In this document: positions 38,736 to 62,607 of the stretch, in pieces
Layout of the letters: each line of letters opens with the position of its first letter
Position numbering within the stretch: the stretch's first letter is position 1
Assembly (NCBI RefSeq): GCF_020382885.2
Contig: NC_058493.1
Coordinates: forward strand, 18,570,999 to 18,634,998
DNA from: Scatophagus argus
Lineage: Eukaryota > Chordata > Actinopteri > Scatophagidae
DNA length: 64,000 nt
Direction of reading: 5' to 3'
Notes under the pieces: generated by a model
The model's database searches: none
Seen by the model: the letters and a program-made list of their open reading frames with translations, nothing else
Told to the model about the DNA's origin: nothing
Made by a program: the position numbers and the translations under genes

Positions 38736-39605
38736 TCCAACTGTGCCGTAGTCATTTCACCAGGGATTAATTAATTTGTAGTATTTTATCATTTGCCTGA
38801 TAACAGCCGCGGATATGTTAATGGCCATTTTAATTTTGAAATAGTCTTTTATGTTAACTCACAGCCTACCACTAATGTTTCCACTAATAGTAATATGTAT
38901 GACATCAAAGCCCTGAATCTGGAACATAGAAGAGCCTTCATGTTTCACCCGCATGTGTAAATGTTATTTGATAAAAGCTTGCGTTCAGCCACCTTAAACA
39001 ACGTAGGAAAAAAACAAACTAGAGTTGCTATTTGACCAACTAAATAAACCGCAACATCAGGCTGTATATATGGGAGTTACACACTAAGTTCTCTTTGCAG
39101 CACATGTAAATCCTCCAGCAGTCAGTCTGGTGTCTTCTGGCTTCTCTGACGGCACTCGGGTTTCAGACGCAGGACTTAATCAACACACTCCATTAATAAT
39201 TCAGCACCGACGGTCGGGCTTGTTGCTGGAATCCCTTCTGCGTTTCACAGCCCTCATTTCGCACCTACCTTTTCCCCTTTACTGGTGTCCTTAATTACGC
39301 TGCTTTCAGACCTGGTGTAGAGTTGCAGGCAGACAGGCTTGCAGTCTCTGTGAGCAAAGTGGCATGTAAGAGGGATCACCTCCTCGACCTGCTGCGCAGA
39401 GATGAAGTTTGAGCTATGAGCTTGTTGACTGCTTTTCCTTCAGCAAAGGCTGCCTCGGCACAGTTAACCAATATGAGGCCTGTTCTCAGCCTTGGCCTTC
39501 TCCCTCTGCTGAGTATCTCTTCCACATCAGCAGGATAAAACTAAGTGGATTTATTTATTTTTATATCTGGAGGTGACTGCTTGCATTTGATTGAGGACAG
39601 TTACG
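38736..39605. other. Intergenic region and probable strc 5' flank
   Basis: There is no open frame with a recognisable product and no marked CpG enrichment, which fits a tissue-restricted gene downstream. No clear TATA box is placed with confidence. Confidence 0.45.
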
Positions 39606-42600
39606 ATGTGGCCGACTCCAGCTGCTTGCATGGTGTGCATCCTATTTGGTAAGTAGACTGCAACATAACATTTCAGAAGCTTCTCTGAAAGCTTGTATTG
39701 TGCTCTTCCACTGAGGTGGCAATATCTAGTCATCAGTGTTTAACAAGCAGTCGGCAAGGAAAGTTTATTATCTTGATGAGATAAGCTTGTTGAAAGACTT
39801 GTAATCACTGTGTTGCTGTAGGCTATAAGTATTGCACACATAATACTGATGTATTTTTTGTCATATTAAAAATCCTGCTTGGAGAGGTAGAATTCCACAT
39901 GCCACATTCCTTTTTCCTAGTGTCACTGTGGACCAACAGAAACGAATATTTGCTGTTTTTTGTTTGCTTGTTTTCTTAATATCTACAGGGATCATATGTG
40001 ACGTCAAGCAAGTGTATCCACAACCCAATTTAATACAAAGAAAGACTGACCAGACTCGTGATCAGGACACCAAGTTAGAGGAAGACATCCAGAGAGTTAT
40101 TAATCAAATCCACTCTTTGTCTGGTGAAAATAAAAATACACGCAGCCTCAGTGACTCATCCACAGGAGAGGATTTTGACTTAAAAGCATATTATGGTGCT
40201 CTGAGTAACTTATACACTGTCTCTCAACCACTGCTGAGCGAAAGATTCATTAATGACCTTCCCAGAACTTTAGTTTGTATTCTGTCAGGGAGACAGGACT
40301 GCGGACTGGAGGCAGAACTAACGAAGACCGTGTCTCTGGAGTTAGTAAAACCACTGTTGACGTTTGTGTCGTCTCTGAGATCCCAGACGTGCGCTCCACT
40401 GAACGGAGATGGAGAGCCAGACGGCTTCCTGAGGGCCTACCTCAGGACGGGGGAATCGGCGACTGCAGCATTAAATGGTTTTCAGCTTCCATTTGTAAAC
40501 ATCCTGTCGAGTCTCCCTCTTTCTGGGAATTTGATGAGCGCTGTGAGCAACATTGTGGATGCAGCGGTCAAATATGTCTCAGAGTTTATGGCAACGTTAC
40601 TCCAAGTACCAATGGAATATGTCCAAATAGGTTTACAGTTTGGAATTAGAATACCATCTTTAGATGGAAAAGAGACCTGTGAACAAGGTAAAACATTTTT
40701 TTTTCGAGTATAAACTTAATTTTCTAATGCTGTGCTGTGTGATATTCAGTTTATTACAAATCAAATTCTTTATGCGTATTAAATTGTTTGCCCACTTGTT
40801 CTGCAGGAGATCTCAAGCAGCTCATTATGTGGTAAGTCATAAGTGAAATTCACTTTTTCGGTATTAAAGCAGCCCTGACCATTAGTACTGCTATGGAGCA
40901 ATGTTTGTAAGAGTGGGTTTCCACACTTTTGTGATTGTGGATGCTGCAACGCTCATTAATGCTGCAGGTTTCCATAGACAGTATGACATGACTCAGAACT
41001 GAGGTGCTTCTTCAGTTTGAATCTTCATTGCAAACAATTAACAATTATGTTAGAAAATATTTTTGTACACAACTCTGTATATAAAAACTTAAGGTAGAAG
41101 TCAACTATGACTTCCAAGGTGAGTTTTGTAAGAAACTTAACTTCATGGCAGAAACATACAAAGAAGCAGCAAAGAAGAAAAGTGCAGCCTAGCAAACGCA
41201 GATGTAAACAATGTGGGATCTAAAATAAAAAACTGCCTTTTCATAATGTTTTATGAGAGAGGAAATACATTCATCTCAAGCGCTCACATAATGTGTTTTA
41301 GTCAGAAATGCTGAATGTCAACAGAAGAAGAATCAGCTTTATTGACAGTATATATATTTTTACATACACACACTGAATTTGTCTTCTGCATTTAACCCAT
41401 CCTTAGTTGAACACACACATGCAACACCCAGCAAATTACATGCAGTGAAACACACACAGGAGCAGTGGGCAGCATCAAGTGCCCGAGGAGCATATTGGGG
41501 GGTTAAGTGCCTTGCTCAAGGGCACATCAGCCAGCTAATGGAGGGGGGAGCATTTTTTTCGCATTAATCACTCCACCACACCCAAATTTTTCCTGCCTGT
41601 CCGGTAGGGGAATCGAACCGGTGACCCTCCGATCACAAGCCGCTTCTCCAACCTCTAGGCCACAGCTTCCCCCACACAACTTGTTGTCATGTCTCTGTGA
41701 AGTAACATACATTTTTTTTATTGAAACAATCTGGAATAATGATCAAATACCTGTTTTGTTTAGGGGGATGAAGAACAATGTGAGCTGGTCCTTCAGTAGC
41801 TCCATTATTGACATCTTCCTGGACATCTTGCTGACTCCAGAACAGTCTCTGTGCACATATCCAGGGACAGAGTGCCAGAATCCTCCCAGTGTCCCCTTCC
41901 AACGAAGCACGTCAGAGGCCACTGATAACAACCCCGACATCCTGCTAAAGTGCGATCGTCACAATCTAGCCAGGCTCAATGACACACTTTGTGCTGACAT
42001 CCTCAAGGGCTCAAGAGTGGGATCCTCTACATCAGTGCCCACCTTTTGCCAGGCACTGAGCTCCCTCAGTCCCACCCAAATGGAGAAGGTGTGGAGCAAC
42101 ATGTGTTATGCTATTCAAGCACTGGTGTCCCCACTTCTCAGCCGGTCGTCTGACTGTGGTGTTGGGAACGCACAGCCTCCCCTGGCTGTCACTCCTGCAT
42201 TTGACACTCAACCCCTCCTTCGAGTAGCCAGAGAAGCCTCCAACCTCAAACAGCTCGCCTGTAACTACAACAGCTGGTTAGAAAACAATGCAGTGGACGC
42301 TGTCCTCGTGTCACTGTGCAGTGATAATGAACGTGAGGAGTTTGTGAGGCAGGTGTGTAGCAATGCTTTGTTGATGCAAAAGCTGCTCTCGGATAAGATG
42401 AACAGCTGGCTGTATGGATACTGTGGCAACTCCTCTGCAGACCCTGGATACATGGTGAGCCAGTTCTGCATCTATGAGCAGTGGATTGACCAGCCATCAG
42501 TCCCCGTGGACCCTGCCTTACTGGAGTTCTGCATGAGTCTGGACAGACCCAGACTGATCAAACTCATCTGTGAGCACACAGGTTTCTTCATGCTTTTATT

Positions 42601-45600
42601 CTCCAACCCTGAAAATGTGCGGCTTATGCCTAACTGTACAAACATGCCCCTACCACCACCACTCCCTGACATGAATTCATTTATGTTAGACTCTTGTCGT
42701 TACTCAGAGTGGCATGATGTGAAACAAATTACCATTGATGTTTTGTCCAAGTGCATCCGCCTTGATAACAGTGGTTTTACTCAAGCGGTTTGTTCCAACA
42801 AAACGTTTCTAAATATCCTGCTGCGCAACGCTGCAAATGCCTGGCTTGAAGATCACTGCAACACCTCTCTTAGCCTCATACCCTCTGAGCCGACCCAGCC
42901 CTTCGACGTTGCAGGCTGGTGCGACTACCACACGTGGGGAGAACGGCAAGTGGACGATTCAGTGGTTGGCCTCTGCTGGCAATATGATCAGCTGGCTTTT
43001 CAGAAGAATGTCTGCTGCAAATCATCTGTGTTTCAAAAGCTTTTACAAAACCCCCAGAACCAATGGTTAACATCGGTCTGCACCAACATAGATGAAATAG
43101 AGGAAACAGCAGTGTTACCACAGGTGGGTTTTTTCTTTGTTTTTTTTTTACCTGAACTGATCTGTATCCAAAGTCTTATCAAAAAAGGATCCTAATTTGA
43201 AGTCTCATTTAGACTAGACATAGACAAATGTAAGAGGATCTTCATCAGCACAAGTTACAGACCATATAATTCCAGACATGTGAAAAGGCTGTCAGACCCA
43301 TAGCAATGAGTAGTCAGGAGAACTGAAGTAAAAAGGTGAATGAATCCATTGGCTACTTGGGTGTAGTCTTTTGACTTAAAAGGAAACCAGAATGAATACA
43401 TGGACAATGAGTGTATTGTTTGAATCTGTGTACAACCACACTTCCCAATATATGAGTTTTGGACTCTTTATGCGCTCATGTTCATATGCACAACAAAAAA
43501 CTAAAGGCAGTAGTATTATTGACGTGACCGAGAACAGAAAACCATGACAGAAAACAAGCTAAAATATTATTTTACAGAATTTGTGTTCTGATGTTGAATT
43601 CATTATCTGTTCTTCAGGTATGCAAGTACTCTGAGTGGACACGTCCCATCATTGTGGACATGACTGAACTAGCTCTCTGCGCTGAGATCGACCGCCTTAA
43701 CTTCACCTCCAAAGTCTGCGCCAATGATACAGTCCTCCAGAACCTGTTGGCCAATCAGGACAACACCTGGTTAATACAGCACTGTGCTAACCATTCAAAT
43801 CCAGGGATAACTCCTGGAGGAAGTGGAGGACAAGATGGAGGCCTGACTGGATTCCACCCCGCAGAGCAGTGCCAGTACTCCAGCTGGATCTTGTCTCTTC
43901 CAGACGCAGCACTCCTGACTCTATGCTGGGAGCGTGACCAGGCCAATTTTGTCTCCTCTATCTGCCCTAATGCTGGTCTTCTCTTTTTGCTGTCCCATGA
44001 GCCGTCTAGTGCGTGGGTGGCCAGCATGTGTAACACCTACACCAACTACACCACTGTCACCTCCACCACCAACAACAGCACCAGTGCAGAGTCTAATTTT
44101 TGCCTGGCCAAAAGCCTGTTGAGGCAGTTCAACTGGACCTGCTCCGCTGACCTGACCTCAGCCTGCCAGCCTGGGGCCAGTCAGAATATGGCCCTGCAGA
44201 TGATGGTGCGCTGCTGGGTGGAGAGTATGGAGTCCAGGGTGAAGAATCTGCTGACTCCACCTGTGGCCACTGTGTTGGATCAAGCCGTCAGCACGACTGT
44301 GGTGATCCTGTTGGCCCTGGAGGAGGTCCAGAACACCTCGCTGCATGTCACTGAGAACATCAGAGGGCACGTGTTAGCGTCTATTGTTCGCTATCTCGAG
44401 AGGGAAAGCAACTTTGACAAAAAGAGGGTCTTGCTGCAGTGCTTTGGGGTTGGTAGTTTCAATGTACAGTATTTGCTTAAAAAGAAACATAACTTGCTAT
44501 TGGTGTTGGAAGTGGTATAAGTACAAAATAGCATGGAATGAAATATCTAAGTAAAGTACCTCAAATTTCTACTGGGGTACAGCAGTGAAGTAAATGTATG
44601 TGGATACATTCCACCACTGTTTCATATATTTGTCTTTGTATTTATTATTAATACTGTATGGATGAACTGGGATCCATTGGTCAGTGAGAATTAATCAATT
44701 AACATATTTTAGCACATTTTTCTGCAGGTTAATCATATTTTGAATCAAGATTCTCCCACATATTTTATTTATAGAGCTCAATCAGTTTCTCTGTACAACA
44801 ATTCATTGACTTTATAGCTTATCTAATTATTCATCCATATCAGTTACCATTAGTGTGGTTGTATAGCAGTTGACCTCCAGTGTACAGCCAGCCTACAGCT
44901 GGTGTACGGTTACACTCCTGTCATGGATATCGACATAATGAATGACTTCCTCTGGGTGTAATCTCTACTGCCTTACACTTGATTCGACAATTACAATAAT
45001 GTGTCAAAACAGACTCCCAGATTATATGGTACCACTAATCCCTTTGTTAACAATGTCACAACCCTGTGTTATGTGTGTGTGTGTTTCCCTTCTGTAGAGG
45101 GCCTTAACGAAATTGATGCAGACGGCCAGAGACCTGACCAGTGATGAATTCTTCGTCATTAAGGTGACTTTAAACCACAGCTTTAATGTTAACGTAAGGG
45201 AATCTGTTGGTTAGTACACTGCTTTGGTCCAGACTGAAATATCACAACAACTGTTGGATGAATTTCCATAAAAATTTGTACAACATTCACGATCCTTAGA
45301 AGATGAATCGTAACTGACTTTGCTGATCCTTTGACTAATCCTAGTGCCATAAGTAGGATAAACCTTTTACTTATACCATGATAATATGTCAACAGATGGT
45401 GCCAACATTCATGGTCCCAGGCAGTGTTACTTAACTTTGGGGATCCCCTGGCTGTACTTTCAGTTTAGTGCTATTATGTTCTAATACAGCAACCTAAAAT
45501 GGTGAACGCAGTAAATATTATATCTGCTTAGCACAAGTTAGCATGCAGACATCACCATTTAGACAGCAGTGCTTAACCACAATCTCACACAGCTGCTAGC

Positions 45601-46915
45601 ATGGCCCGCTATAGTCTTTTAGGCTTGTTTCTGTAGACATCCTTGCATCATTTGTGTCTTTACTGTCTGTGTTTTTCATATTCATTTCCTCATGATGGTT
45701 ATATGTCCAGGAATACTTTAGTATACCACTGAGCAGCCTGAGGTCGGTGCTCAGTGCAGCTCACGTCACCACAGTCAGACTGATTCTTCAGTACTACAGC
45801 AGAAACAAGGATACACTGCAGGTGAATAAGCACACCATTACACATCCATGTGAAACCTACTCTAATGACATTCAGAAGTCTCTTGCTGTTTCCTCCTGAA
45901 ATCTTTTGCTTCTCTGTTTCACTGCTACAGCGTTTGTATGCAGTACAGTCTCGCATTCTTGCCAACACAGAACTGCACTTTGCTTCTGTTTGCCAGTTGC
46001 CTGATAAGTACCTGTCCACCATGGTGTCAGTGCTGTTCCAGACCCACCTGGTAAAAGATGATAGTCTCTTCCCTGAGTTGGCTCCCCTGCTGGCTACAGC
46101 CTCCCCAGCTGACATCCAAGCTTTGCCCTCACTGCAGAACAACGGCAATGTGTAAGTGATGCTGTCAACCAGTCATTTCTGATAGCCCATATTTGTTAGT
46201 TTTCAGCCCAATAGTCATTGTTATAAGGCAAATTTATTAATGATTATTGAGTCACCTATTCTAACAGAAGTATTTGTTTGTTGCACTTGCGTGAGAATGA
46301 TGAGGACAGTTTCTCGCCCTTTTTGTGAAGTTCTTTAATATTCAGGAATATTTTGCGCAATGCTATTAGCAAAGGAACGTGCATATTGTTTTTTTTGTGT
46401 TCCTCTTTGTTTTCATCTTCAAAATTGCCTCCCTTCTTCATGCACATTGCCAGCAGATGTTTTGTCAAAAGCTCCAACTGAGTCAGCTGTTAGAGTACTT
46501 TGTGAAATTGTGTGTTTAAGAATACATGTTTAGAGGAGCTGTTGATCCCCATGCATGTCGGTTACAAAGGTAAAACTCCTGACTAACAGTGGCAAGATAA
46601 TTATGATGAGACCGAATGTACATGTTCACATCCTGAATATTCTGTCAGACACCTGCGATAGGTTTAGATTCACTTAGCAGCAAAAGAGATCCTACTTAGT
46701 GTTATTTATATCAGTCAAACAATGCGGTAACTGTGTTTTTCAGTTGTGCACAATCATGCAGTCTCACTTTGATACACACATTATGCCTCCACCTGGTGTC
46801 AGACCTCTGTGAGAAGTGATGTGTCATTGCACCCTGAAGTGCCAGGAACATCAACTATGCATAGAAAGTAAAGGAAACTAGTTCACTGACTAGATTTCAG
46901 TCTAGATGGGGTTTA

Positions 46916-46964
<49 letters not shown>

Positions 46965-49900
46965 ACTCATTTGATTAGAACAGAACATTTCAGAGTATTT
47001 TCAGCTTGACATGGGGATGTTTCTTACAACTAATTTCCCTAATGTTCAAATAAGTGAACACTCAAAAAGCAGTCAGAATTGAGCACAATTTAATTTATGA
47101 CTTTAGAGTGTATATTAAACAAAAGAGGTATAATGTAGTGTTACTTATGTGGTGGAAGGCTCCTTGATTCCAGTTGTGCTAAACTAACCTTATAGGTGCT
47201 TGCCTGTAGATTCATTTTTAACAGTGAGAGAGAAGAATGGTATTAATCTTTTCATCTAACTCACAACAAGAAAGTGAAGAGTAAGAACATTTCCCACAGT
47301 CCCGGCAAAATTATTTTTACCTGGTCCATCTTTCAAAGTAGGCCAAAAATATTTTGCACATATTTAATAGAAGTGGAGTGGAAAGCAGCAGTTGAAATAA
47401 ATCACACAAATTTAAACAAAACTGTTTGATTTTTTTTCCCAAAGGAGGGAGACCATTAACAGAAACTTGTGGCAAATGACTCCTGATCAGCGATGGGCAT
47501 TTGGCATGTGGTACAGCAAAGCTATGCCCCCCTCCAGCATCACAGGAGGTCATCAGTCGCTGATCAGGGACACTGGAAACCTGATCGCCTACCTGCCCTT
47601 CCACAACTTCCAACACCTCTCACCTGCTCAGGTAACAGCCCTCTGAGCTCTGACACCTGGCTGGGAAACCTGAGAAGTCAGAACTCTGTCAGTCCAATTA
47701 GCTTCAGGCTCACAGAGGAGCTACTTGTCACATACTGGTCAAAAGAAAGGCCAGACAGCCTTTTCTTTCTCTGTCACCACCAATGTGTGTCATGTGCTTG
47801 TAGCTAATGTTCAATAAGTAAAGATAGGAACACATTAATTAAGAATGACCTGAAGACAAAGGGGTTACTGACCTTTCAGCACTCAACTGTGAATTAAAAA
47901 GAAGGTCTTAAAGAACTGTACATAATTTTATGAGATATGTTGGTTTGCTTTCTACAGTTAGATTAGAAGAATTAATCAACTCTCATGTCTGTTTGGCTCC
48001 AACCACCAGCCAGTTAGTTTAAGTTTGTTCCAACCCACAATGAAACTATGAAATAGTTATATTCACACTTTGGTTTATAATAAAAAATGTGATATAAAGT
48101 GTTAATGAGTGAGCTTTAGAGTTGGTCATACATAACAACAGAGCCAAGCAAACTCTCTTTGCATAAGTTTATGATTCAGAATTATTTCATATTTTATGAT
48201 CACCATTTTAAGATCAGTGATCTTTGTCATTACCACATTCAAGTAGTAGACACACATTTAGTGTCACATATTCAGACAGAAATTCTACTATTGCTGTATT
48301 TCACAGATCTGAGTCCTTTTATAACAACCGACTTTGGGCTTTTTTTTTTTTTTTTTAAATCACTTGAAAATAAAATATGGATTCACAGGTTGAATTTTTT
48401 TGGGGGCTTGTTTAGAAAAACATGGTTGCTATTTAAGAAAATTGAAGTGACATTACTGTGTTCCTGTTATCATGTTTTTCCACAGCTATTGGACGGGCTG
48501 GAAGTGTTGCAGAGAAACACCCTCACGCCTCTGAAACAGGAATTCGTAGCTCACAGCATCATCAGCACCTACAGAAACCTGACAGCTCAGGATTTTACCA
48601 GGTTGGGAATGACTATATGGAGAAACCTCCAACTTTTCTGTCCATGTAGACTGTCTAATAGACCCCAGCTCAGTAGGTATAACCTCAGATATAATGTGTG
48701 AAAATACACTGACCTTTGGTTTAATTTAATTTTCATTTCAGGTACATGTTGAACCCTGTTAATATCATATAAACAGATTGCTTGTCTGTTGCTTCCATAA
48801 TTACATAGTTACATGAATATGAACACATATATATACAGTATAATAGATTTTCTGTAATTATGGTTATTTTCAAAAAGAACCGCACACAACCAACACCTTA
48901 AAAATGTGTTCTCTCATCTGCAGTTATGTTTTAAAGGGTTTTAATAACACACAGTCAATAATTTTTTTTGTTAAAGCAGTGTTATGTGTAATTTTAGGCT
49001 GCGTAATCTCTCATGCCTGGCAGACCCAGCGGATCTCCTTTTGTACAAAGACACTGAGATCTTCAGTGTCATCCGAGACATCGTTATGAACTGCACGCGT
49101 GAGCGACTCAGTCTGCCCAGCAATCTGGTAGGAACACAAAAGTTGCTGCTTTCGCTGAACAATTACCTCGCAGGAGCATCTGTAAGATATGCTGCTCTCT
49201 CTCTCTCTCTTCTGCACTTTATGTCCAGATCTCCAGTTTGCTACTGAACAGCACAGAGTTAAAGGTCCCCTCCTTGCTCAGTCCTGTTCGACTGGCAGAG
49301 CTCGCCCCCCTCCTGCCCGCTCTGGGTGCGCCTTTCCTGCAGGGTCTCACGCCGTCGCAGCTGCTCGCTGTCCTGCCCGCCATCAGCTCTGTTTCATTCA
49401 GCCCTGCACAGGTAGAGGAGCGCACTCCGTTTTTTTAACTTGTGAGGTGTCAGTGAGTGGGGGGTTTAGTCAGTCCCTTTCACTACACAAGCATCTATTT
49501 GTTGTACATGGTTGAGTTTCCTGGCAGCTGGTGGGGCTTGTACGACTGAGGAACAGCTGACAGGCAGTCTTCAGCACACAGGCCTCTGAAGTGAGATGGC
49601 TCATGAGGCAAAGACTTGGGCGTTACTTTACCCTCAGCAATCATCTGAACCGGAGCCTTTTACTTTTACCTCAGCCTCACAGCTGTTGTCTTGCTTTTAC
49701 ACTATGTTGCATGGACAGGTGTTCTTCAAGCCCAGAGAACTTTTATATTCCATCAAATAGTTAAGGTGAAGCCAGAATCTTGGGTTTGAATATTTCTTTC
49801 TTTCTATATGCATGCACCACTACACCACTGGAGCGAGTAGATACAGAATACATGACAGACCAGCAAATTTCCAGTTACCACTTGAATGGCAATTTATTTT

Positions 49901-52900
49901 TATTCATTTCCTGATGTTCTTTATGTTTTTCAGGCTTCCATAATTGTAGACAAGATGTCCTCATCAAGTAACACTGTAAGTTATTCTGTAAATTTATCAT
50001 AATGTAAACACGACACAGAGAGGTTCTCAGTTCCTTTACATCCTGACCTTCACATCTTCCTCCTTTCTGTCCAGCTGACTGCTCCAGGCCAGCTGCAGGA
50101 GCTTGGTTCCCTCATTATGGGAATGAAGACAGAAAACCTGTTGACTTTGACCTCTGACAGGCTGCTGTCATCCCTGCCTGCCATGGCTCAACACACACCT
50201 GGCCTCAGCCCACCACAAGCCAATGCTGTCTCCACCAAACTATGGGTACAACACACACACACTAGCAGCAGAGAAAAGACCAAAAAAAATGTTTCCCTAT
50301 TTTCACAGATGAAAAAAAAAAACCCTTAAAAAATGATCCAGGTGAAATTTTTTTTGATATACCAAAAAAACTTTCATTTACTTTTTGCCTCTCAGGGCTG
50401 CCAAAATATATGAAAATTGATTTCATATTTAATAACCAATCTTTCAGTGGAAAACCTTCAGTTCTATGATTCGTTTTCATCTGTTAGAGGATGGCTATTA
50501 TCTTATTGTTTTCTCACCAGGGCTTCCCAGAAGTGGTCAGTTGGTTGGATGATGTGGAGCCTCTGCTCTACTGCACGCCCCTGCTCAGCATCCTGCCCAG
50601 GACTCGTCTGCTCGTGAACAACATTTCCACTGCATCCACAAAACCCTGGAACACACAGCAGGTATCATACAGCCCATCTTACATCCTGGAGGCCATCATA
50701 ATCAGACTTTGCCAGATGCATATGTGTGGATGCTGTTTTGGTTGATCAAATACCAATGATAGTTCAAAACCAAAATAGTATTTAGTATTTAAGAAAGAAG
50801 AAAATAAACATTTTGAGAAAGTCTGAAAAACATACTTGATAAATTTAAAGTAGAAATATATTTTAAACTGTCCTGTTAAAAGCCCTTTGTGCCTTTTGAC
50901 CTCAAGATGCCCCTCTTTACAGCTTTGCTCGCAATTAAAGCAGTATTTGACAAATAAAAAACATCAAATCAGGCCATTTCTGTTGCGCTAATACCTCAAT
51001 TTTGAAATGTTATTCACATAAGCACAAAAAAACAGAAGTTTAGAGATGAACAGAGACAAAACAGAATTTATAGAAGTGTTTCACCCGTTGATGGAAAAGG
51101 CCATCAAGTCTTTAGTCAGTTGACAAACACTTGAAAGCAATGAACCCTGAGTCTCTGACTTTTACTTTGTGTTATGATCTCCCTGTGCTTCCTCTGATTA
51201 AATATGCTTCCCCTGTTTGTCACAAGAGGGTTTGTATGACAGCATCTTGATTAGCTGTTAAATTATTAAGAAGAAGAAGCAAAAGCTGAGACGTCATCCT
51301 GGCTGGCAGTCTGAATGGACAAAAGCTCTCTTCATATCAGATGGCCTTCGCATCTGATCATCAAAACTGGGAACGAACACAGCCCAGAGCCTGCATTAAG
51401 CAGCATGTTACAGCGCTTACTACCTAACACAACATTTTTTCCATTTTCTTCCCCAGGCAAAAGCAATTTTCAAAGTGGTACTTGATACTAAACCAAACTT
51501 AATCAACCTAGATTTCCTGTAAGTACAATTCATGTCTGTGATTAATGGGCATATTTTTTTTTTCTGCACTCATTCTTTGTCTCTATCCAAAATGTATGAA
51601 TGCTTCTGGCAGCAGATGCTCTAATTTTCTCAGTCTCTTTTTAACCTTGCAGCATTACAGCATATGTGTGCATATATTTGCATGTGCTGACGCTCACCTT
51701 TTTATGTAATCAGGAGTCTGGGAGCTGTGGGTCAGGGTGTGAGCTGCAAAGTCTTACAGGAACGTTTTCGGGTTGATTCCTCACCTTCTTCAGTGAGAAG
51801 GATCCTGACTTTCCTCAGGCGGCAGCCTGGTCCTCTTCACACCTCTCTGGTAAACTTGCTTAAATTAATGCCATTCTACTGTCTGTAATGAATGTGATAT
51901 ACAGTTTATCTGTATCTGCGTGTCCTTCGTCATATGTCTTTGTTTTCTGGACAGAAAACGTGTGTGATCGAGGAGCTGTATCAGTTTGAGTTCTTCTCTG
52001 AGCTGCTGAAAGACCTCGGAGCTGAGATCGCCCTGTCCATGCCGTAAGTCAGAAGTTGGAATTAGTCAACTGACCGTTAATGTGTTCGCATCATTTTTCA
52101 AAATGATTGCGAGGAATCTCATTTTGAGAAGAAGTATATGTCAAAAATCTTCAAGGGAATCACTACACATTTTTTTCTTGGCAGAAAAGATGTGGTAAAA
52201 CAGCAGTATATGAAAGTGATTTAAAGATTTATTGACTATACAATGAACAATTTTCTGTGTCCTTCTGCCCCTGTGTGTTCATGTGGTTGCTTGCAGGGTG
52301 AGCACCATTAAGAAGTTTCCTACAGATATGATGGACACCCTGAGGAGGTTGATTATTCAGGACCCTCATCACTTTCTCTTGCTGTCTAGAACAAAACAGG
52401 AGCTGCTGGTGGACAAAATGGTGCAGAGGATGGTCAGTAGATCTACACTATATGGCCATGCGGGTCCTTTTCCTGTTTCAAAAAGTTAAAAGGCGATTAA
52501 AAAAAAAGAGGAAGTTGGAAACATAAGATTTGCAGTTTGAATTCAGAAAGATTTATAAGTGTCCAACAGTGCAAAGTTTCAGATGTTTGTAGTTTTAGCT
52601 GGATGATCAGTGGTTTGTGGATTCTTTCTCTGTAGGGCATGTACACAGGGTTGTTCACAGAGGAGGAATTTCGTACTCTGGGCATTATGGCTCCATTTGT
52701 GGTGGATGAGGTTTTCATTCAGCTGGACCGCAACTTCTTTACGGAGAACGTGGATTTCCTCCAGGGGCTCTGCTACAGCAGCAGCAAGATGGACATCGTG
52801 GCTCGTATCCTGCAAGAACCTGCCGTCTTCGGGTAGTGTTATCACCTCAGGCTGACGGTGTTGAGAACAACAACAAGGCAGTATGACCATGCCATTACTG

Positions 52901-55900
52901 AAACTTGGCACGCGTCGGATTAATGAAAAGAAAACCCATCGGCATTTTATAATAAAAATACTAATAACAGGAATGTGAAAATTAAAATGTAATATAGAAA
53001 TAACAAACACACATAACTGAAATAATATAAAATGAGTAGAACTAGTAGTACTTTTGTTTAAATTCACAGGTAAATACAGGCAGGCTCTGTATGTTCTTAT
53101 ACATGTAGTCTCATGCAAGCATCTCAGCAGTTCTTTTGCAGTTGAAGGAGAATTTTCTATATAAAGTATTCAATGAATTTGATTTTATTTATATGATATT
53201 TTGCCATTGTTTGAGCTGAGTTAATCAGCAAACTTTCCAGTTTCTCGTGGGAGAAAATCCAACTAACGAGTGTTTTAAAAGTGTGTTTGTGGGATTTCCT
53301 CAACCTATACAGTGAGACATGTAAGCTAACACACTTTTCTTACCAGTTATTCACATGGAAACTGTGGAAAGATGATGAAGAGTTTTTATGTTTTCTCACA
53401 GCCCAGCTAAGAACTGGAACCAGACAACCCTCAGCCAGGTGGACCGATTTCTATTCTTCCTGCCTGACGACAAGCTGCAAGAGATTTCCCCTGTGAGTTT
53501 ACTGCTATATTTTCTTTTAACTGATCTTAAAGAATTCTCAGGTTAAAAGAGTCAATTTTACAACTCGTTCCTGTAACAGATTCCCGCAATGTCCAGTAAT
53601 TCCATAGTGATACGCTGGGATTGTTACTTGATCCCACGTCAGGTTAGGCCAACAAAGGTTGTAAATAAATCCCTCAGGTGTCACATCTCCAGAAGGTGTC
53701 AGAATGCAGCGGTGAAGTTCTTGTTTTCTGGTAGACTGTCATCGTGTGTTCGTGTTTCAACATGTGAATATGTGTGCTGCTGTTTGTATTTCCACAGGCC
53801 TTGATGACTGTTGGCCGTATAGAGAAGTTGTTCATGAGCCAGCGACAGTGGGAACGAGGGCATGTGGGAAAACTCTGCTTAGACAAGAATGAGAGGAAGA
53901 AGCTTTTTGAAAAGCAACAGCTTGTTCTTCAGTTTTTCCTGGGCTTCCTCAAAATAAATCTTGTGTCACGTGAGCATAATTTTGGTTCCTAAAATCTCTG
54001 AATTAACCCTGATGATTCTCCAACCAAGTCCAATTCAGTTATAGGAGAGCCTTTAACCAAAGAGACTGCCATCACATGAACACACTTATTTCTTTTTTGC
54101 TGGGGGGTTGAAAAAAGAAGATCGACATCAGTCTCATATCTGATCATTTAGTTCAAGTCTACAGCCAGCAGTTAGCTGCGGTTAGCTGAGTTTATAACAC
54201 AAACAATGGAACTAGCCTGACTCGGTCCAACAGGTAACAAAATCCAACTACGGCACCCATAAAGCTTACCAGCTAACATATTATAACTTGTTTGTATAAT
54301 CTGTACAAACACTGGAGTTTAAAAATAAACGGATGTGCTTTTACAGTTGGTTATGTGTGGAACTATTCCATGGTAAAGCACAATTACTTCCTGGAGTCTT
54401 GAGAGTCTTGTTGTCACAGCAACCAGCATATGCTCTATTGTCCAATGTCAAACTATGGAGTAGCACTTAGAGAAGCATTTGTTGATGTTTTTTGCTGTAT
54501 GTCAACAGCATCTCCTGATCAGATGTTTGCGTCTCTGTCCTTTGCCAGCGACTCCCATGGTTCCCACCTGTGAGATCCTGCGTACAACAGCTCCCTCTGC
54601 CTGGACCTCTAACAGCCTTGCGAGCATGTCTTCGTCCGCCTTCTCGAACTGTCTGGAGCTGATTGGTCGTGACCCATTCCTTGCATCCTACCAGCGCAGC
54701 CAGATGCTCAAGAAAGTCAAACAGGTGAGATTCATTTGTAGTCTACTTCAGTCCATTTAAAGGAGCAGTTCACCCTAAAATCAAATCTACTTACTTTGAG
54801 ATGTCTGCCTTCTCTCCAGTGTAATGGGACTAGAGGGTGCTTCATTTGTGGTGCTCGAAGTGCCAAAAAACATTTTTGAAAAATTCAACAACATCCCTCT
54901 CGACCCGTTTACTCAAAATAATCAGTAGTCCTTGTAATGAGTAGTTTCACAAGCATTAGTGTCTCATTCATGAGTAGATGCATGTTCCCTTCTGCTCTGT
55001 GTTAGGGCATGATTTAGAAGAAAGAAAATAGTTCCTACATGAAACTGTTCACAACAAGGTCTGTGGATGATCTTGAGTAACCAAGTCCTGGTTTCTGGAA
55101 GGAGTCATTAATTTTGAGTTTTTTGGTCAATAACTCCAAAACCTGGCAACTCATACAAAACTACAAGTAAGGGGAAACATATGTTTTTTTAACTTTGGGT
55201 TGAAGTATCTGTCAGCTGTCTCAGATGTATTTAATTCAAAGCTGTAGAGCAGTTCCCCTCCTCAGTCCAGGTCTTAATAAGATGTGTCTGCTCCATATTC
55301 ACCGGGCCCTTCTGGAATAATATGTGTGTATGAAGATATACGGCCCAGTCGCGTCCTTTTCCCAGTCTGTGATCTCTCAGCTGGGTGGAATAGCGGTAGA
55401 GCTGTCGCTAGAGGAGCTGAGCAGCCTCCAACTGACTGAGCGAAGGAGCATCGCCTCTATGGGTGCCATCAGTGCCTGGAGCAATCGACAGGTAGCTGCT
55501 TTGGCCGTACATTTAACATAGCTGTAGCTACAGTAATAAACTGGGCTGTATGTGTGGATCTTAACTCCTTTTCTCATCTCAGCTTGCTGCACTGTTCACC
55601 TCCGTGTTAAACTCCACCAAGCAGAGTCCAAGTCAACTTGACTCCAGCATACTCGTGGCAATGGGATACATTGTGTGTGGAGCTAAAACCACAGAGATGA
55701 ATTTGTTCAACGCCATTGAGTTCAGGTGAGCAGATAAAATGCACTTTCACAGGCCCTTTTGAATGTGTTCTTTTATAGTCTTGATGTTTGACTCCAACTC
55801 CAGCTCTGCTGCTGCCAATATTCAGTCCCGTAATTTCCCTCCCAACCCTACACTCCTTGTGCTGTGTCTCTCCCTGGTGGCTGCAGTAAGGCGGTGCTCT

Positions 55901-57342
55901 GGCTGGGTCAGCTGAGGCTGTCCTGCTCAGAGGAGCAGCTGCTGGCTCTTGTCGGACTGTTGGCCCACAGTCTTGCTTTTGGACCCATAAGTTCATGGGG
56001 AACTGATGTCTTCATTGAGATCGGAGTTCTGGCAGGTAGTGAGCATTCGCTTCACTCACCGGTTTTCAGTATTTTCACACCTATATTCACTAATACTGTA
56101 AGATTTTATTTATCAGTCAGTTGCTAATTGCATTTTAGACAGCTGTATTCAATTTCTCAATATTGACAAATGGATCTTCTTATAATCAGCTTATTTGTGT
56201 TGCTCAGTCAAATGTTATATGTACTCACAAGCTTAAGATAAAGTCGATTTTATTATTTGTCTTCTTGACACCCTCTAAATCCATGCAGTGACTCACCCGT
56301 TGGTGGATCCTTGCATCTGTGACTCATGCGATTATTTTGCACTTTTTTCAGCTGGTCTCCCAGATATTGCGATGTCAGCTTTGGTGAAAGAGCAGATTGA
56401 AGGAATCAAACCTCTGGCCATCTCAATGATACCACCTAATAAGTTTGCTGTAAGCAAAGTCACTACATTGAGACAATTTTCATTTCACATTTCACAGCTC
56501 ATATAAACTGAATTTTGGTGGTGAATTCACCTTGACAGCTCTGAGTCTTATCTCATCTGTTCCCATCTATCTGTCTGTCACTTCCTCAAGGTGGTGTTTA
56601 ACCAGAGGCAGATCGGTATGTTCTCCTACGAGCAGGCTGCAGCAGTAACTGAAGAGCAGCTCGCCGCTCTGTCTGATGTGCAGAGGACGGCTCTGGCTAT
56701 GGTGCTGACACCGTGGGAGGACAGGCCTGTAGACTTCAGAGGTGAATCACTGCATTTCTTGTTACTAATAACAGTAAAGAAGGGTCATTTCTGGAAGATT
56801 ACTTATTTTTTCTTATTAATGAAAGATGTTATTTATTTGATAAATATGAACTAACCTCTTTCAAAGCTTTAACGTTAAAGTTGTGTCCCAGTTCCATACT
56901 TGTTTGCTTGTTTTCTTGCCTGAGATCATCCAAGAGCTGTTTTATTTAAATTTTTCCCAGCTGTAAGTAGCTCCTCTAGTATGTGCTTTGTGCCTCTGCA
57001 GGATTCTTAAATCATCTCTGTAGCATTACAGGACTCATTGTGTTGTTTATATGTGCTTTAATAATTTCACAATTACATATATCAGTTTTTCTGATATGTT
57101 TGATGATGTGTTTTCCTGACTACATCACACAAAAACAAAGTGTAACGGTGTTTGTTGTTATGATATATAAAGACACAGGAATCATACTTTGCATGGCTCA
57201 ACATTTGAATAAGCTTCACTGTGTTCCTGTAGGGAAGTCACTGGGGTTGGCACTGAGCCACAGTCCTCTGTGTCTCATACTGGGACTGCTGACACTGCTG
57301 ATCGTCCTGCCCTGTCCCGCTCTGATCTGCCCTGGCACATGA
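39606..57342 (+). CDS. strc: Stereocilin
   Basis: Large extracellular protein of the stereocilin/otoancorin/mesothelin superfamily. In mammals it forms horizontal top connectors and tectorial attachment of hair-cell stereocilia. Model of 29 exons (6192 nt, 2063 aa): 39606-39648, 39989-40687, 40807-40831, 41764-43123, 43618-44448, 45098-45163, 45711-45821, 45931-46151, 47445-47631, 48486-48601, 48998-49127, 49229-49411, 49934-49975, 50075-50245, 50521-50661, 51457-51518, 51714-51849, 51955-52043, 52297-52432, 52636-52832, 53402-53492, 53798-53969, 54549-54724, 55336-55491, 55583-55725, 55887-56035, 56352-56449, 56591-56741, 57233-57342. Exon 1 encodes a signal peptide ([15 protein letters not shown]). 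W-G-x-x-x-N-x-S-W in exons 3-4 matches the human protein. A six-fold Cys module array fills residues 422-848. The armadillo-like C-terminal half ends with [23 protein letters not shown] and [16 protein letters not shown], close to human, then a hydrophobic tail fitting GPI anchoring. Longer than human (1775 aa). Least certain: the exon 5 donor (GTTGGT) and the exon 24 acceptor. Confidence 0.93.
41330..41672 (-). repeat. tRNA-derived SINE, antisense, in strc intron 3
   Basis: Read on the - strand, this has a tRNA-like head with box A 'tggcctagaggttgg' (complement of 41648-41662) and an exact box B GGTTCGATTCC (complement of 41609-41619), followed by a body that ends with a widespread fish tail ('aaagctgattcttctt' region at 41325-41343). 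It appears nearly full length, about 340 bp. Its head end lies about 90 bases before strc exon 4. Confidence 0.8.
42260..44031 (+). other. strc: Six tandem four-cysteine modules in stereocilin
   Basis: Modules start and end on cysteine codons: 42260-42424, 42467-42637, 42695-42859, 42920-43081 (exon 4), 43621-43785 and 43870-44031 (exon 5). They are 55, 57, 55, 54, 55 and 54 residues long. The shared pattern is C1-x-Y3-x-x-W6, C near 20 after an L-rich helix, [VI]C near 33, then LL and W-[LV] before the last C at 54-57. Modules one, three and five keep identical spacing (1, 20, 33, 55). The exon 4/5 intron falls between modules four and five. Confidence 0.85.
44519..44630. repeat. Teleost interspersed-repeat fragment in strc intron 5
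   Basis: The stretch 'aagtacctcaaatttctac...gtacagcagtgaagtaaatgtatgtggatacattccaccactg' closely resembles the end of an abundant fish DNA element that finishes 'ttacattccaccactg'. The 5' part of the element is not evident. Confidence 0.6.
45195..45630 (+). repeat. Abundant teleost interspersed repeat in strc intron 6
   Basis: Several blocks of a repeat I know from many perciform genomes occur in order: 'cagactgaaatatcacaaca', 'ttggatgaatttccat', 'gatgaatcgtaactgac', 'ggggatcccctggctgtac', 'gtttagtgctatta', and 'agcagtgcttaacca...cagctgctagcatggc'. It fills most of the 547-bp intron between 45164 and 45710. The element class is not certain. Confidence 0.65.
46152..47444 (+). other. strc: strc intron 8
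   Basis: A 1.3-kb intron with a (TG)n microsatellite at about 46918-46961 and otherwise AT-rich sequence. I see no additional exon; the flanking exons join in frame (phase 2). Confidence 0.7.
46918..46961. repeat. (TG)n microsatellite
   Basis: About 22 uninterrupted TG units in strc intron 8. Confidence 0.95.
47632..48485 (+). other. strc: strc intron 9
   Basis: An AT-rich intron with a T-run at about 48341-48357. It contains an open stretch leading into exon 10 (from 48159) that has no stop but also no coding character, so I treat it as chance. Confidence 0.65.
50662..51456 (+). other. strc: strc intron 15
   Basis: An AT-rich intron of 795 bp. I see no repeat or exon that I can name. Confidence 0.65.
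53970..54548 (+). other. strc: strc intron 22
   Basis: A 579-bp intron; no repeat family recognised with confidence. The acceptor at 54547-54548 gives the proline-rich [11 protein letters not shown] start of exon 23. Confidence 0.65.
54757..55190 (+). repeat. Teleost MITE-like repeat in strc intron 23
   Basis: It begins 'ttaaaggagcagttcaccctaaaatcaaa', the end of a common fish non-autonomous element, and goes on with its typical blocks 'gagatgtctgccttctctcc', 'aatgggactagagggtgc' and 'ggtgctcgaagtgccaaaaaa'. The other end ('ggagtgaactgctcctttaa' type) is not seen, so the copy seems truncated or decayed at 3'. Confidence 0.65.
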
Positions 57343-58756: not shown

Positions 58757-61700
58757 GTGAGGAAACTAAGTTGGGAAGGATAGCTATCTGTGCATCATTC
58801 GCTTGTCACAGCCTTTGTTTGGACGAGACAAACGCTCCGTTATTGTCAGACTCGCTTGTTAAATGTGGATTGGTTTAACGAAATTTATGTTGTCGTTTTT
58901 ACAGACGCTGACAACTTCGAGCCGGAGGAGCCGATTAAAAAGGCGGCAGCGATGGACAGATGGGAAGGTGAAGACGAAGATGAAGATGTCAAGGTAAAAT
59001 AACAGGACAAGCACACGTTTAGTGTGAGTTGGGATTTTGTATGGGTTCAAGGTAAACCGGCTTTTTGCTCGTCTGGTTTGTGTCAAGCTAACGTTGGGTC
59101 GAAGCGCTGTTGCCCCCGCTGTGTTGCCATGCTTCAACGCGGTTCCAGGCTGCCTGTCAATCCTAACAGCCGAGCCTGTGTTAGCTTTGTGCTAGCTGGC
59201 GGCTAACTCATGTGGCTCCATCAGACAGCCTGTAGTACCTCCAACTTGGCTAACGTTGTGCCACTACTCGGTTTTCTACTGTCGTAACATACCGTTGTGG
59301 AATAAACTTGATTTCTGTGCGCTGGTGTTGTTTGTTTTTATTTGGAGGCTGGTCGTTAAAGGTTTAGTTAATTATTCGAAAGCCGCACTAAATTTGGATA
59401 ACGTAGCTTGAAGCTAAGCTCCAACCGGGCCACTTAGCTAGCAAACTCGCTAACTTAGCTCCCATATCGGCTTGCCTCTGAAAATGGGCTTTAATGTTGG
59501 TCAGCTTCGACGTAGCGTCGCTTACTTAACTTGTTTGGAGTACTTGTCTAATATGTGGTTAATGTGGACGGTTATCCCGTCATTGCCCAAAGTTGGTTGC
59601 ATTAAACGATTATAGAAGATTAGCATTCGTGTCCCGTCCTGAATTCCCACAGCTTGGGTTACGTTCAGCATGAGGCAGCGTTAGCTTGCTAACCAACTTT
59701 AGCTGTAATCAGATGAAATCATCTGGGTTGATGACTCAACTCAGCCAAGAACTAGGCCTAGAACTTTCCGACTTTACAACAGGCCTGTAGTAGGAAACTG
59801 GTGCTCAGTTGATAACTGCTGTACAGGTGCTTATTGAGTGAATGTTGACATGGTTGTTGTCCAGAAACCTCTTATAATTGACCCAGGGAAAGTGCTGGTA
59901 GATGCCTTTTCCATTGTTCCGTTTTCTGTAACATATGGTGTCATAACTAAAGAAACCAATGGATTCATATGTACTGTAGTACAGACTATGGTCTTATTCA
60001 GCAAAGCAAGTAAAAAAGCAAAGTAATTTTTTTTGTGACAAAATAGGTGCTATCACCATTAAGTACGGCCCAAAATAGATACATTTGTAATTCCAAATGG
60101 ATAGATGAATAGGACAGCAAAGCCCACTGAATAAATAGAGTGTGTGTCTCTGTAAAGTTGAGGAGGTTATTCCATTTACAGTTTGTGAAGTGCTGAATTT
60201 TGCAGACAAGAGTTTGGCAAGGAACTTTATTGAATTTATGTAGAAAATAACATTTAAATGATTAACAATGCTAATGTGGATACTTTTGGAGTTTAGTGCA
60301 CCTCTGACTGTTCGACCCATCTTAAATTGCGTGTGTGAACTTGGTTTTTGGATTAGCCCCAGGCGCCAGCAGTTTTTTTAAGGCAGTGTCAAGTCAGGCT
60401 AGTATGCATGCAGTCAGTAGCCCAGTATTATCACACACCGTAAAAATCACACATAAAATGATCAGTCAGATTTTCAAAGCAATGAACCATGTATCCCCTC
60501 TTAAGTATTACATGAGACCAAATTCTTGAAGGTTTCAAACAAAAACTTAAATCACTAATTTTGTTTTGAGGATAATAATTTTTCCCCCATCACTACTGTC
60601 AAAGTCTTAGCAGTCTTGATGTACTTGGACTCACCCAGCACCGCTTATTTTTTTGTCATCGTTTGTGTGTTATATTTCTGTATGCATGTTTGTTATGTAA
60701 CATTAACTGACATTTATCTCAGGGTTTTCATACAGTTTGACTGTGTAGCCTGCATAATAAAACGGTACCTTTCCCATCGTTGTTTATTTTTAGGACAACT
60801 GGGATGATGACGATGAAGATGAGGAGAAAAAAGCTGAGATGACAAAAGCAGGTATGGCCCTGTGAAACATTACAATATGGACATGTCGTATATTGATCAG
60901 TGGCTAAGTTGCCTGCTTTTTCTACAAACTGATGTCTCGTTATTCTCATTACTATTGTTATTATTATTGTTTTTAGTTTCAGAGCCAAAGGTATCTGAAA
61001 AGAAAAAGTTAATTGAGAAGATCAAAGAGAAAGAAAATCGGCTAAAGAAAAAACAGCAGGAGCTGAAGCAGCAGTTGCAGGAAAAAGTGAGATTTTTTTT
61101 AATCACTTATGACTGCAATAATTCACTTCATAATTCACATCATGTCACCTTTACTAATATTCGAATGTTGTTTTTGTGACATCTGTTGTTTCAGGAAGAA
61201 CAGCTCACTCCTGAAGAACAACTTGCAGAGAAGTTAAGAGTGAAGAAATTACAGGAAGATTCAGACTTGGAGCTAGCAAAAGAAGCTTTTGGTAAGTCAG
61301 GATCACTTTTCATGTATTTCTTTTCATGTATATTTAATCTAGTGCTCTTAAAAATACACCCTTTTTGTAAACATGAAACCATACATGAAGTGGGTACCTT
61401 TTTTGAGAATTATTTAATTTATAATTCATATTTAATGTTAAATTTATCTTTTATGTATATATATAAATGTATGTATGTATGTATGTAGTAAAAGCTGAAG
61501 GTTTTATCATAATGACATGTTTCATTTCAGTCTGTCAATAAGTGACAATCTTTTTCTTTTTTTTTAAACATTTTAGATTTTAGTCTAGGCAGCACTAGAA
61601 ATCCCTAGTGCAAATTATTTGTCTATTTGTGCTTTTTTAATTGACTTATTCATGTTAGTACTTTTACTAAATCAAACCAAGGAACTCTTGACTGAATGAC

Positions 61701-62607
61701 CATGAAACTACTAAATTCAAGCGCTACCCTTCTTTGGCATTTCTGTACTGCAATTTCTTGTTATTGCTGTCATCCCAGCACCCTCAAAATCCAGCCCAAC
61801 TTTTCACCTTAGAGGCAGCTCATTGGTATAAACACAAGCAAAACATTGGAGGTCCAGTATAAAAGTAAGGCTTTGCATCTGTGACTCTTTATGTTCTTTG
61901 AAGAGACACCCAACTGCTTTTTTAAAATATTTTTTCCAGGTGTCAGCAGCACTGCAAACAGTGTCACTGGGATTGATGCCATGTGTCCATCTTCCAAAGA
62001 AGACTTCACAGAGTTTGAAAAATTGCTGAAAGAAAAGATATCCCAGTTTGAAAAGTCTGTGCATTATTCAAGTTTCTTGGATTCATTGTTTCGGGAACTC
62101 TGTATTTCATGTAAGACCAGCATCTTCTACAACCATTTTTAGTGAACAATATTGATTATTGTGCTTATTCACAAAATTAGCATTGTACATTTTAATCAAA
62201 GCAGGCTTGACTAATAACCTTTTTTCCCTCTCTTACAGTGGAAGTAGATGACCTGAAGAAAGTCAGTAATTCTCTGTCAGTCCTACTTAGTGAAAAACAG
62301 AAACAAGAAAAAGTGAGTTGACTCCATGCTTGTATTTTTTCACAGATAAATCCATTAATTTTCAGAAGAGGGTGCTGTTTACCTAGCCTGATCATTTGTG
62401 TGTGTGCTCTTAATAGAAATCAACCCATTTGTTCCCATTGATGTACATATGTAAACAGACTTTTATTTGCTTTTGTAGCAAAACAAGGGAAAGAAGAAGA
62501 AGAAAGGGGTCGTACCTGGAGGAGGTTTGAAAGCACAGATGAGAGATGACCTTGACTATGCAGAGTTTGATGGTGGCTACGCCCAAGACTATGAAGACTT
62601 CATGTGA
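58744..62607 (+). CDS. eif3j: Eukaryotic translation initiation factor 3 subunit J
   Basis: Loosely bound subunit of eIF3 that sits in the mRNA entry channel and decoding site of the 40S subunit and takes part in start-site selection and ribosome recycling. Eight coding exons: 58744-58756, 58905-58993, 60794-60851, 60977-61086, 61195-61291, 61940-62110, 62239-62312, 62479-62607 (TGA 62605-62607). They total 741 nt, 246 aa (human is about 258). The N-terminus MADWDADNFE corresponds to the human SWDAD region but is shorter. DRWEGEDEDEDVKDNWDDDD is the conserved acidic motif. A Lys/Glu-rich helix follows (KKKLIEKIKEKENRLKKK), then LTPEEQLAEKLR, GIDAMCPSSKEDFTEFEKLL and KQEKQNKGKKKKKGVVPGGG, ending in the conserved QDYEDFM. 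The first coding exon gives only 13 nt. No anomaly was found. Confidence 0.97.
58994..60793 (+). other. eif3j: eif3j intron 2
   Basis: A 1.8-kb intron. The first 700 bases contain scattered CG and many 'gctaac/gctagc' words, as in presumed ctdspl2 intron 1. I recognise no repeat family or exon. Confidence 0.7.

What the first reader, a model, noticed from the sequence alone, without database searches (positions are those of the whole stretch)
42260..44031. Six-fold tandem array of a ~55-residue four-cysteine module in fish stereocilin
Seen directly: six consecutive units of 54-57 residues share C-x-Y-x-x-W, then C near 20, [VI]C near 33, and W-[LV]-x3-C at the end; three have identical spacing. 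The matching part of human stereocilin, as I recall it, has only a few degenerate units (for example around ICQTAVWY...LQAC). The array may account for much of the ~290-residue excess over human. Inference: a disulfide-linked stack that sets the length or adhesion of the connector between stereocilia, reduced in mammals or expanded in fish.
Basis: partly seen in the sequence, partly recalled or inferred. Interest (0 to 1): 0.72.

Follow-up and report, generated by a model that had tools for sequence, protein, structure and literature searches.

The report
Six-bead cysteine array in fish stereocilin
A fish version of the hearing protein stereocilin carries six copies of a small cysteine-containing helical domain that no database searched here describes, where the human protein seems to keep only three worn copies.

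Summary
Six units (window 42254-44046) lie in two open exons of one gene. Profiles built without the tested unit score 28.7-56.7 bits, against at most 6.2 in 200 shuffles. C2-C3 is 13 and C3-C4 is 22 residues in 6 of 6 units.

The gene is stereocilin: PF21058 starts right after the array and matches further exons.

AlphaFold2 models one unit as a compact five-helix domain (pLDDT 92.9); two neighbours are joined by a weak linker. This suggests beads on a string. No significant Pfam or PDB match was found.

Between anchors fish has 693 residues and human 367, and I read three degenerate human units. Fish units differ from one another about as much as fish from human (30% against 32%), which favours an old array reduced in mammals.

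A spacer or zipper role in stereocilia links is inference. Disulfide pairing and other species were not tested.

The parts
41951..41992 (+). Possible degenerate half-unit before the array (C304 to C317 of the spliced protein, 13 apart)
   Evidence: Only the C-13-C step is present; the profile does not report it
42254..42454 (+). Unit 1
   Evidence: Alignment A1; leave-one-out 49.4 bits
42464..42652 (+). Unit 2, the most diverged; lacks the W before C4
   Evidence: leave-one-out 28.7 bits
42692..42874 (+). Unit 3
   Evidence: leave-one-out 43.5 bits
42917..43096 (+). Unit 4; has a fifth Cys next to C3
   Evidence: leave-one-out 50.4 bits
41764..43123 (+). Exon holding units 1-4, within an open frame of 562 aa; the first full codon starts at 41765
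   Evidence: ORF, splice sites and continuous spliced frame
43124..43617 (+). Phase-0 intron between units 4 and 5
   Evidence: GT...AG, frame kept
43618..43794 (+). Unit 5
   Evidence: leave-one-out 56.7 bits; modelled at pLDDT 92.9
43867..44046 (+). Unit 6
   Evidence: leave-one-out 43.0 bits
44101..44214 (+). Possible degenerate half-unit after the array (C856-C869-C893, steps 13 and 24)
   Evidence: Cysteine steps only; the profile does not report it
43618..44448 (+). Exon holding units 5-6 and the start of Pfam Stereocilin
   Evidence: PF21058 positions 1-36 match residues 242-277 of this exon, E 2.4e-10
39989..56749 (+). Stereocilin gene as far as traced. Seven exons between 39989 and 46152 give a continuous 1104-aa frame; exons downstream come from a rough spliced alignment to a recalled human sequence; the signal-peptide exon was not found

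Best explanation
This is the N-terminal part of a fish stereocilin (STRC). It carries a row of six copies of a compact five-helix module of about 55 residues with four cysteines, spaced by 14-28 residue linkers. The part known from the literature to be mesothelin-like follows. Shown: the array, the gene, the strict cysteine spacing, and a confident single-domain model. Shown with a recalled human sequence: a human segment shorter by 326 residues that I read as three worn copies. Inferred: the four cysteines pair within each unit, the array is ancestral and was reduced in mammals, and in the hair bundle it works as a glycosylated string of stable beads that sets the reach of the top connectors, and perhaps self-associates, while the mesothelin-type part does the anchoring and partner binding. 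Rough odds: gene identity 0.97, array real 0.99, mammalian reduction 0.7, spacer or zipper role 0.35.
For: Leave-one-out profile scores. Fixed 13 and 22 steps. PF21058 on the next exons. Spliced alignment to recalled human STRC with 107 of 250 residues identical at human 1500-1749. Unit model pLDDT 92.9, pTM 0.75; pair model 81.8 with a linker block at 59. Fish 693 against human 367 residues between anchors. Human cysteine steps 21-13-20, 17-13-20 and 11-20; the human segment scored 7.5 bits with the fish profile, 0 of 1000 shuffles as high. Glycosylation sequons lie next to C4 in 4 of 6 units, reached in 0 of 5000 shuffles. Mouse stereocilin is needed for top connectors, and these and the attachment links are absent without it (passages of PMC4281357, and PMC8491653); strc is expressed in zebrafish hair cells (passages of PMC11524865).
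Against: The human sequence is from memory. No published residue between 345 and 589, where the human units lie, was checked. The second anchor is weak (22.7% identity, E 0.003). The fish profile reports only two of the three human units, at 1.1 and 0.2 bits. The human count is a reading of cysteine steps without a chance control; one search lists four overlapping C-(11 to 13)-C-20-C triples (at 412, 472, 505, 527) and no C-13-C-22-C in human. PF06060 (Mesothelin) did not list the stereocilin locus in this genome at E up to 1, so the mesothelin-type reading of the C-terminal part rests on the literature and the human alignment. No other fish, bird, frog or shark was examined, so lineage-specific expansion is not excluded. 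The model rests on six sequences from one protein, and disulfide geometry could not be read. The sequon positions were chosen after looking at the sequence. Nothing here tests function.
Confidence: 0.5

Rival explanations
1. The units are one disulfide-stitched ARM/HEAT-like solenoid continuous with the mesothelin-type part, so they are structural repeats of one rod rather than separate beads.
Confidence: 0.25
2. Fish-lineage expansion: the common ancestor had about three units and fish doubled the array.
For: Odd and even units group best of 10 possible three-three splits (8.8 against 4.4 for the next), as doubling of a two-unit block might give. Only one genome was seen.
Against: Mean identity among units is 30%, about that of fish and recalled human stereocilin at human 1194-1666 (147 of 465, 31.6%), so the duplications look about as old as the split if rates are alike. 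Human unit 3 shares the stretch VCANDT with fish unit 5 only, which hints at separate identities before the split; but its best raw score is with unit 4, and the unit-to-unit scores do not sort the human units clearly.
Confidence: 0.25
3. The array is a binding surface for otolithic, cupular or kinociliary matrix in fish, not a spacer; copy number tunes avidity.
For: Strict core with variable remainder and linkers, and sequons by C4 in 4 of 6 units. Stereocilin is also associated with attachment links to the tectorial membrane in mammals (passages). Fish have no tectorial membrane (general knowledge).
Against: No ligand evidence. It does not by itself explain a reduction in mammals, which still attach to a matrix.
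Confidence: 0.2

Closest known systems
Human stereocilin (STRC), N-terminal segment about 391-558 (recalled sequence)
   Same: Same gene and same place in the protein; three units by cysteine steps (21-13-20, 17-13-20, 11-20); the C3-x-N-x-[ST] sequon stands in two of them and in fish units 3 and 5.
   Different: Three rather than six units; C-x-Y-x-x-W is lost; C3-C4 is 20, not 22; the segment between anchors is 326 residues shorter.
Mesothelin (MSLN), ARM/HEAT solenoid
   Same: Superfamily to which human stereocilin 1194-1666 is aligned in PMC2628672 (passages); all-helical, glycosylated, with disulfides (passages of PMC10035497).
   Different: The unit profile found no unit in 30 kb around each of two mesothelin-family loci of this genome; mesothelin repeats share little sequence and pack into one core.
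Otoancorin (OTOA)
   Same: Mesothelin superfamily protein of the inner ear (abstract of PMC2628672).
   Different: One of the two mesothelin-family loci here may be OTOA, which I did not establish; neither shows a unit in the stretch examined.

Membership tests
Stereocilin (STRC) | Pfam PF21058 Stereocilin over the curated cut-off | tested here: met
   Over cut-off at the end of exon 43618-44448 and in 5 of 12 stretches tested further downstream (45931-46152, 47455-47631, 48120-48698, 48975-49244, 49103-49435); below cut-off in one (50003-50326, 20 bits, reaching the last profile position); not listed in the other six, all beyond that point
Stereocilin (STRC) | Collinear likeness to human stereocilin over its length | tested here: met
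   487 of 1481 aligned residues identical, 107 of 250 at human 1500-1749. The human sequence is recalled, and the rough alignment skips parts of the array and reads a few stretches there in a wrong frame
Stereocilin (STRC) | Signal peptide and C-terminal GPI signal | tested here: inconclusive
   First exon not identified; the C-terminal end was traced only to 56749
Stereocilin (STRC) | Neighbouring genes as on human 15q15 | tested here: inconclusive
   eIF3 subunit J downstream by Pfam in two stretches. CTDSPL2 and GOLM2 upstream and the human gene order are recognised from memory; Pfam gave no match for the four upstream stretches tested
Mesothelin superfamily | Pfam PF06060 Mesothelin match in the gene | tested here: inconclusive
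   Not listed for any of the 15 window stretches given to Pfam, nor at this locus in the genome search at E up to 1; exons were searched one by one, the whole protein was not
ARM/HEAT repeat proteins | Repeats packed into one continuous hydrophobic core | tested here: inconclusive
Any Pfam domain family | Match to a curated model over its cut-off in the unit | tested here: not met
   No match on exon 41765-43123; none of 6 units has a match over cut-off, the best being E 0.075
Saposin-like and other small disulfide-rich helical domains | Their cysteine pattern and disulfide pairing | not tested
   Considered from memory only; the Pfam and PDB profile searches listed no such match

The most novel reading that the evidence does not exclude
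The unit is an undescribed vertebrate domain: a disulfide-locked, N-glycosylated five-helix bead confined to stereocilin. Its copy number differs between lineages and directly sets the rest length or stiffness of hair-bundle top connectors, and the loss of half the beads in mammals went with the move to outer hair cells attached to a tectorial membrane.
Probability: 0.2. Interest if true: 0.75.

Novelty: new variant of a known kind. Interest (0 to 1): 0.45.

Why it matters
Stereocilin variants are a major cause of mild to moderate recessive deafness (abstract of PMC8491653), yet the N-terminal exons tested here carry no Pfam domain over cut-off before PF21058 begins. A defined module gives boundaries for expression and structure work, and a rule for reading missense changes at cysteines. 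A likely pathogenic human change, p.(Cys590Arg) in exon 4 (PMC10668944, sections read), lies just after the human units in the recalled sequence. If unit number varies between vertebrates, it offers a natural series for testing what sets the length of hair-bundle links.

Full report
What was checked. The window lies in a 570.7-Mb genome of 48 contigs. The two long open frames are real: 562 aa ending at 43195 and 330 aa at 43528-44520. Seven exons from 39989 to 46152 join at GT/AG sites into one frame of 1104 residues without a stop. The first exon with the signal peptide was not found.

The array. Six units align with seven invariant positions, C-x-Y-x-x-W, C, C, L and C. A profile built from five units finds the sixth at 28.7 to 56.7 bits in all six cases; the best score in 200 shuffles of the protein was 6.2. 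The C2-C3 step is 13 and the C3-C4 step 22 in 6 of 6 units, and C1-C2 varies from 18 to 21 (positions). Six such triples were seen against a mean of 0.07 and a maximum of 2 in 20,000 random placements. Half-units showing only cysteine steps flank the array (C304-13-C317 and C856-13-C869-24-C893); I call them possible.

The gene. Pfam Stereocilin (PF21058) begins at residue 242 of the exon that ends the array. It is over cut-off in 5 of 12 stretches tested further downstream, reaches its last position, below cut-off, at 50003-50326, and is not listed in the six stretches beyond. eIF3 subunit J lies downstream (two stretches). The upstream CTDSPL2-like and GOLM2-like frames are recognised from memory only; Pfam gave no match for the four upstream stretches I gave it. 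A rough spliced alignment to recalled human STRC gives 487 of 1481 identical residues, 107 of 250 at human 1500-1749; it skips parts of the array and reads a few stretches there in a wrong frame. PF06060 (Mesothelin) did not list this locus; that the C-terminal part is mesothelin-like rests on PMC2628672 (passages), which aligns human stereocilin 1194-1666 with mesothelin.

The human comparison and its limits. Its length, 1775, equals the published length (PMC2628672, Results section read). Six of six residues named in PMC10668944 agree: R344, C590, E1275, G1366, F1495 and P1520. In one search I tried seven residue and position pairs of my own recall: three agreed (R1521, Q1343, L1640) and four did not (R1604, W376, R1588, C1484). 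None of these seven has a source here and I give them no weight either way. Two codons implied by DNA changes in passages of PMC5711943 also fit (T1709, Q1353); the amino-acid letters there are my inference. No published residue inside 345-589 was found, so the human units are bracketed, not confirmed.

With that caution: shared anchors are human 273-300 with fish 222-249 (42.9% identity, E 1.7e-5) and human 668-827 with fish 943-1104 (22.7%, E 0.003). The stretch between is 367 residues in human and 693 in fish. The human stretch has cysteine steps 21-13-20, 17-13-20 and 11-20, which I read as three degenerate units. This reading had no chance control; a mechanical count of C-(11 to 13)-C-20-C gives four overlapping triples (412, 472, 505, 527), and C-13-C-22-C does not occur in human. 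The fish profile reports two of the units, weakly (1.1 and 0.2 bits). The whole stretch scores 7.5 bits, against a maximum of 6.1 in 1000 shuffles, of which 519 gave a reportable score.

Age. Mean identity between fish units is 30% (25-39%); fish and recalled human stereocilin share 31.6% at human 1194-1666 (147 of 465). If rates are alike, the duplications are about as old as the fish-tetrapod split, which favours loss in mammals over recent gain in fish. Human unit 3 and fish unit 5 share VCANDT, which hints at separate unit identities before the split but could be chance: unit-to-unit scores do not sort the human units clearly. TRF finds no DNA-level repeat of the array's period in 39000-45000, in line with age.

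Reach of the module. In this genome the exon with units 1-4 matches only itself and the next exon. Two mesothelin-family loci were listed (C2 near 23.79 Mb, C15 near 16.64 Mb; 3 of 4 matches over cut-off). In 30 kb around each, the unit profile gives nothing above 7.4 bits. Those stretches may not hold the whole genes.

How it may work. Mouse stereocilin is needed for top connectors, and both these and the links to the tectorial membrane are missing without it (passages). strc is expressed in zebrafish hair cells (passages). I infer a string of rigid, probably disulfide-locked and glycosylated beads on flexible linkers ahead of a mesothelin-type solenoid. Such a string would set reach and could self-associate like a zipper. 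Mammals would have shortened it. This step is inference with odds near one in three; the solenoid, matrix-binding and fish-expansion rivals remain open.

Verdict. The array is real and, as far as the searches here show, undescribed; the gene is known. I rate it a new variant of a known kind with moderate interest. Surveying unit counts across vertebrates is simple and would decide the evolutionary half of the claim.

Noticed in passing
window 42254-44046: N-glycosylation sequons cluster beside the fourth cysteine (4 of 6 units) and two positions after the third (2 of 6); the latter is also seen in two recalled human units.
   Followed up: partly
window 43124-43617: A phase-0 intron falls between units 4 and 5; PMC10668944 places human Cys590, which lies beyond the human units, in exon 4, so intron positions may differ between fish and human.
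   Followed up: no
window 42254-44046: Odd units resemble odd and even resemble even slightly more than other groupings, as if a two-unit block had been duplicated; best of 10 splits only.
   Followed up: partly
window 61180-61485 and 61885-62139: eIF3 subunit J gene downstream of stereocilin (Pfam PF08597).
   Followed up: partly
window 41320-41680: The intron before the array holds a stretch that looks like a common fish interspersed repeat (impression from memory); no tRNA gene found there.
   Followed up: partly
L010 and L011 (G000 C2 near 23.79 Mb, C15 near 16.64 Mb): Two further mesothelin-family loci, without the four-cysteine unit in the 30 kb read around each.
   Followed up: partly
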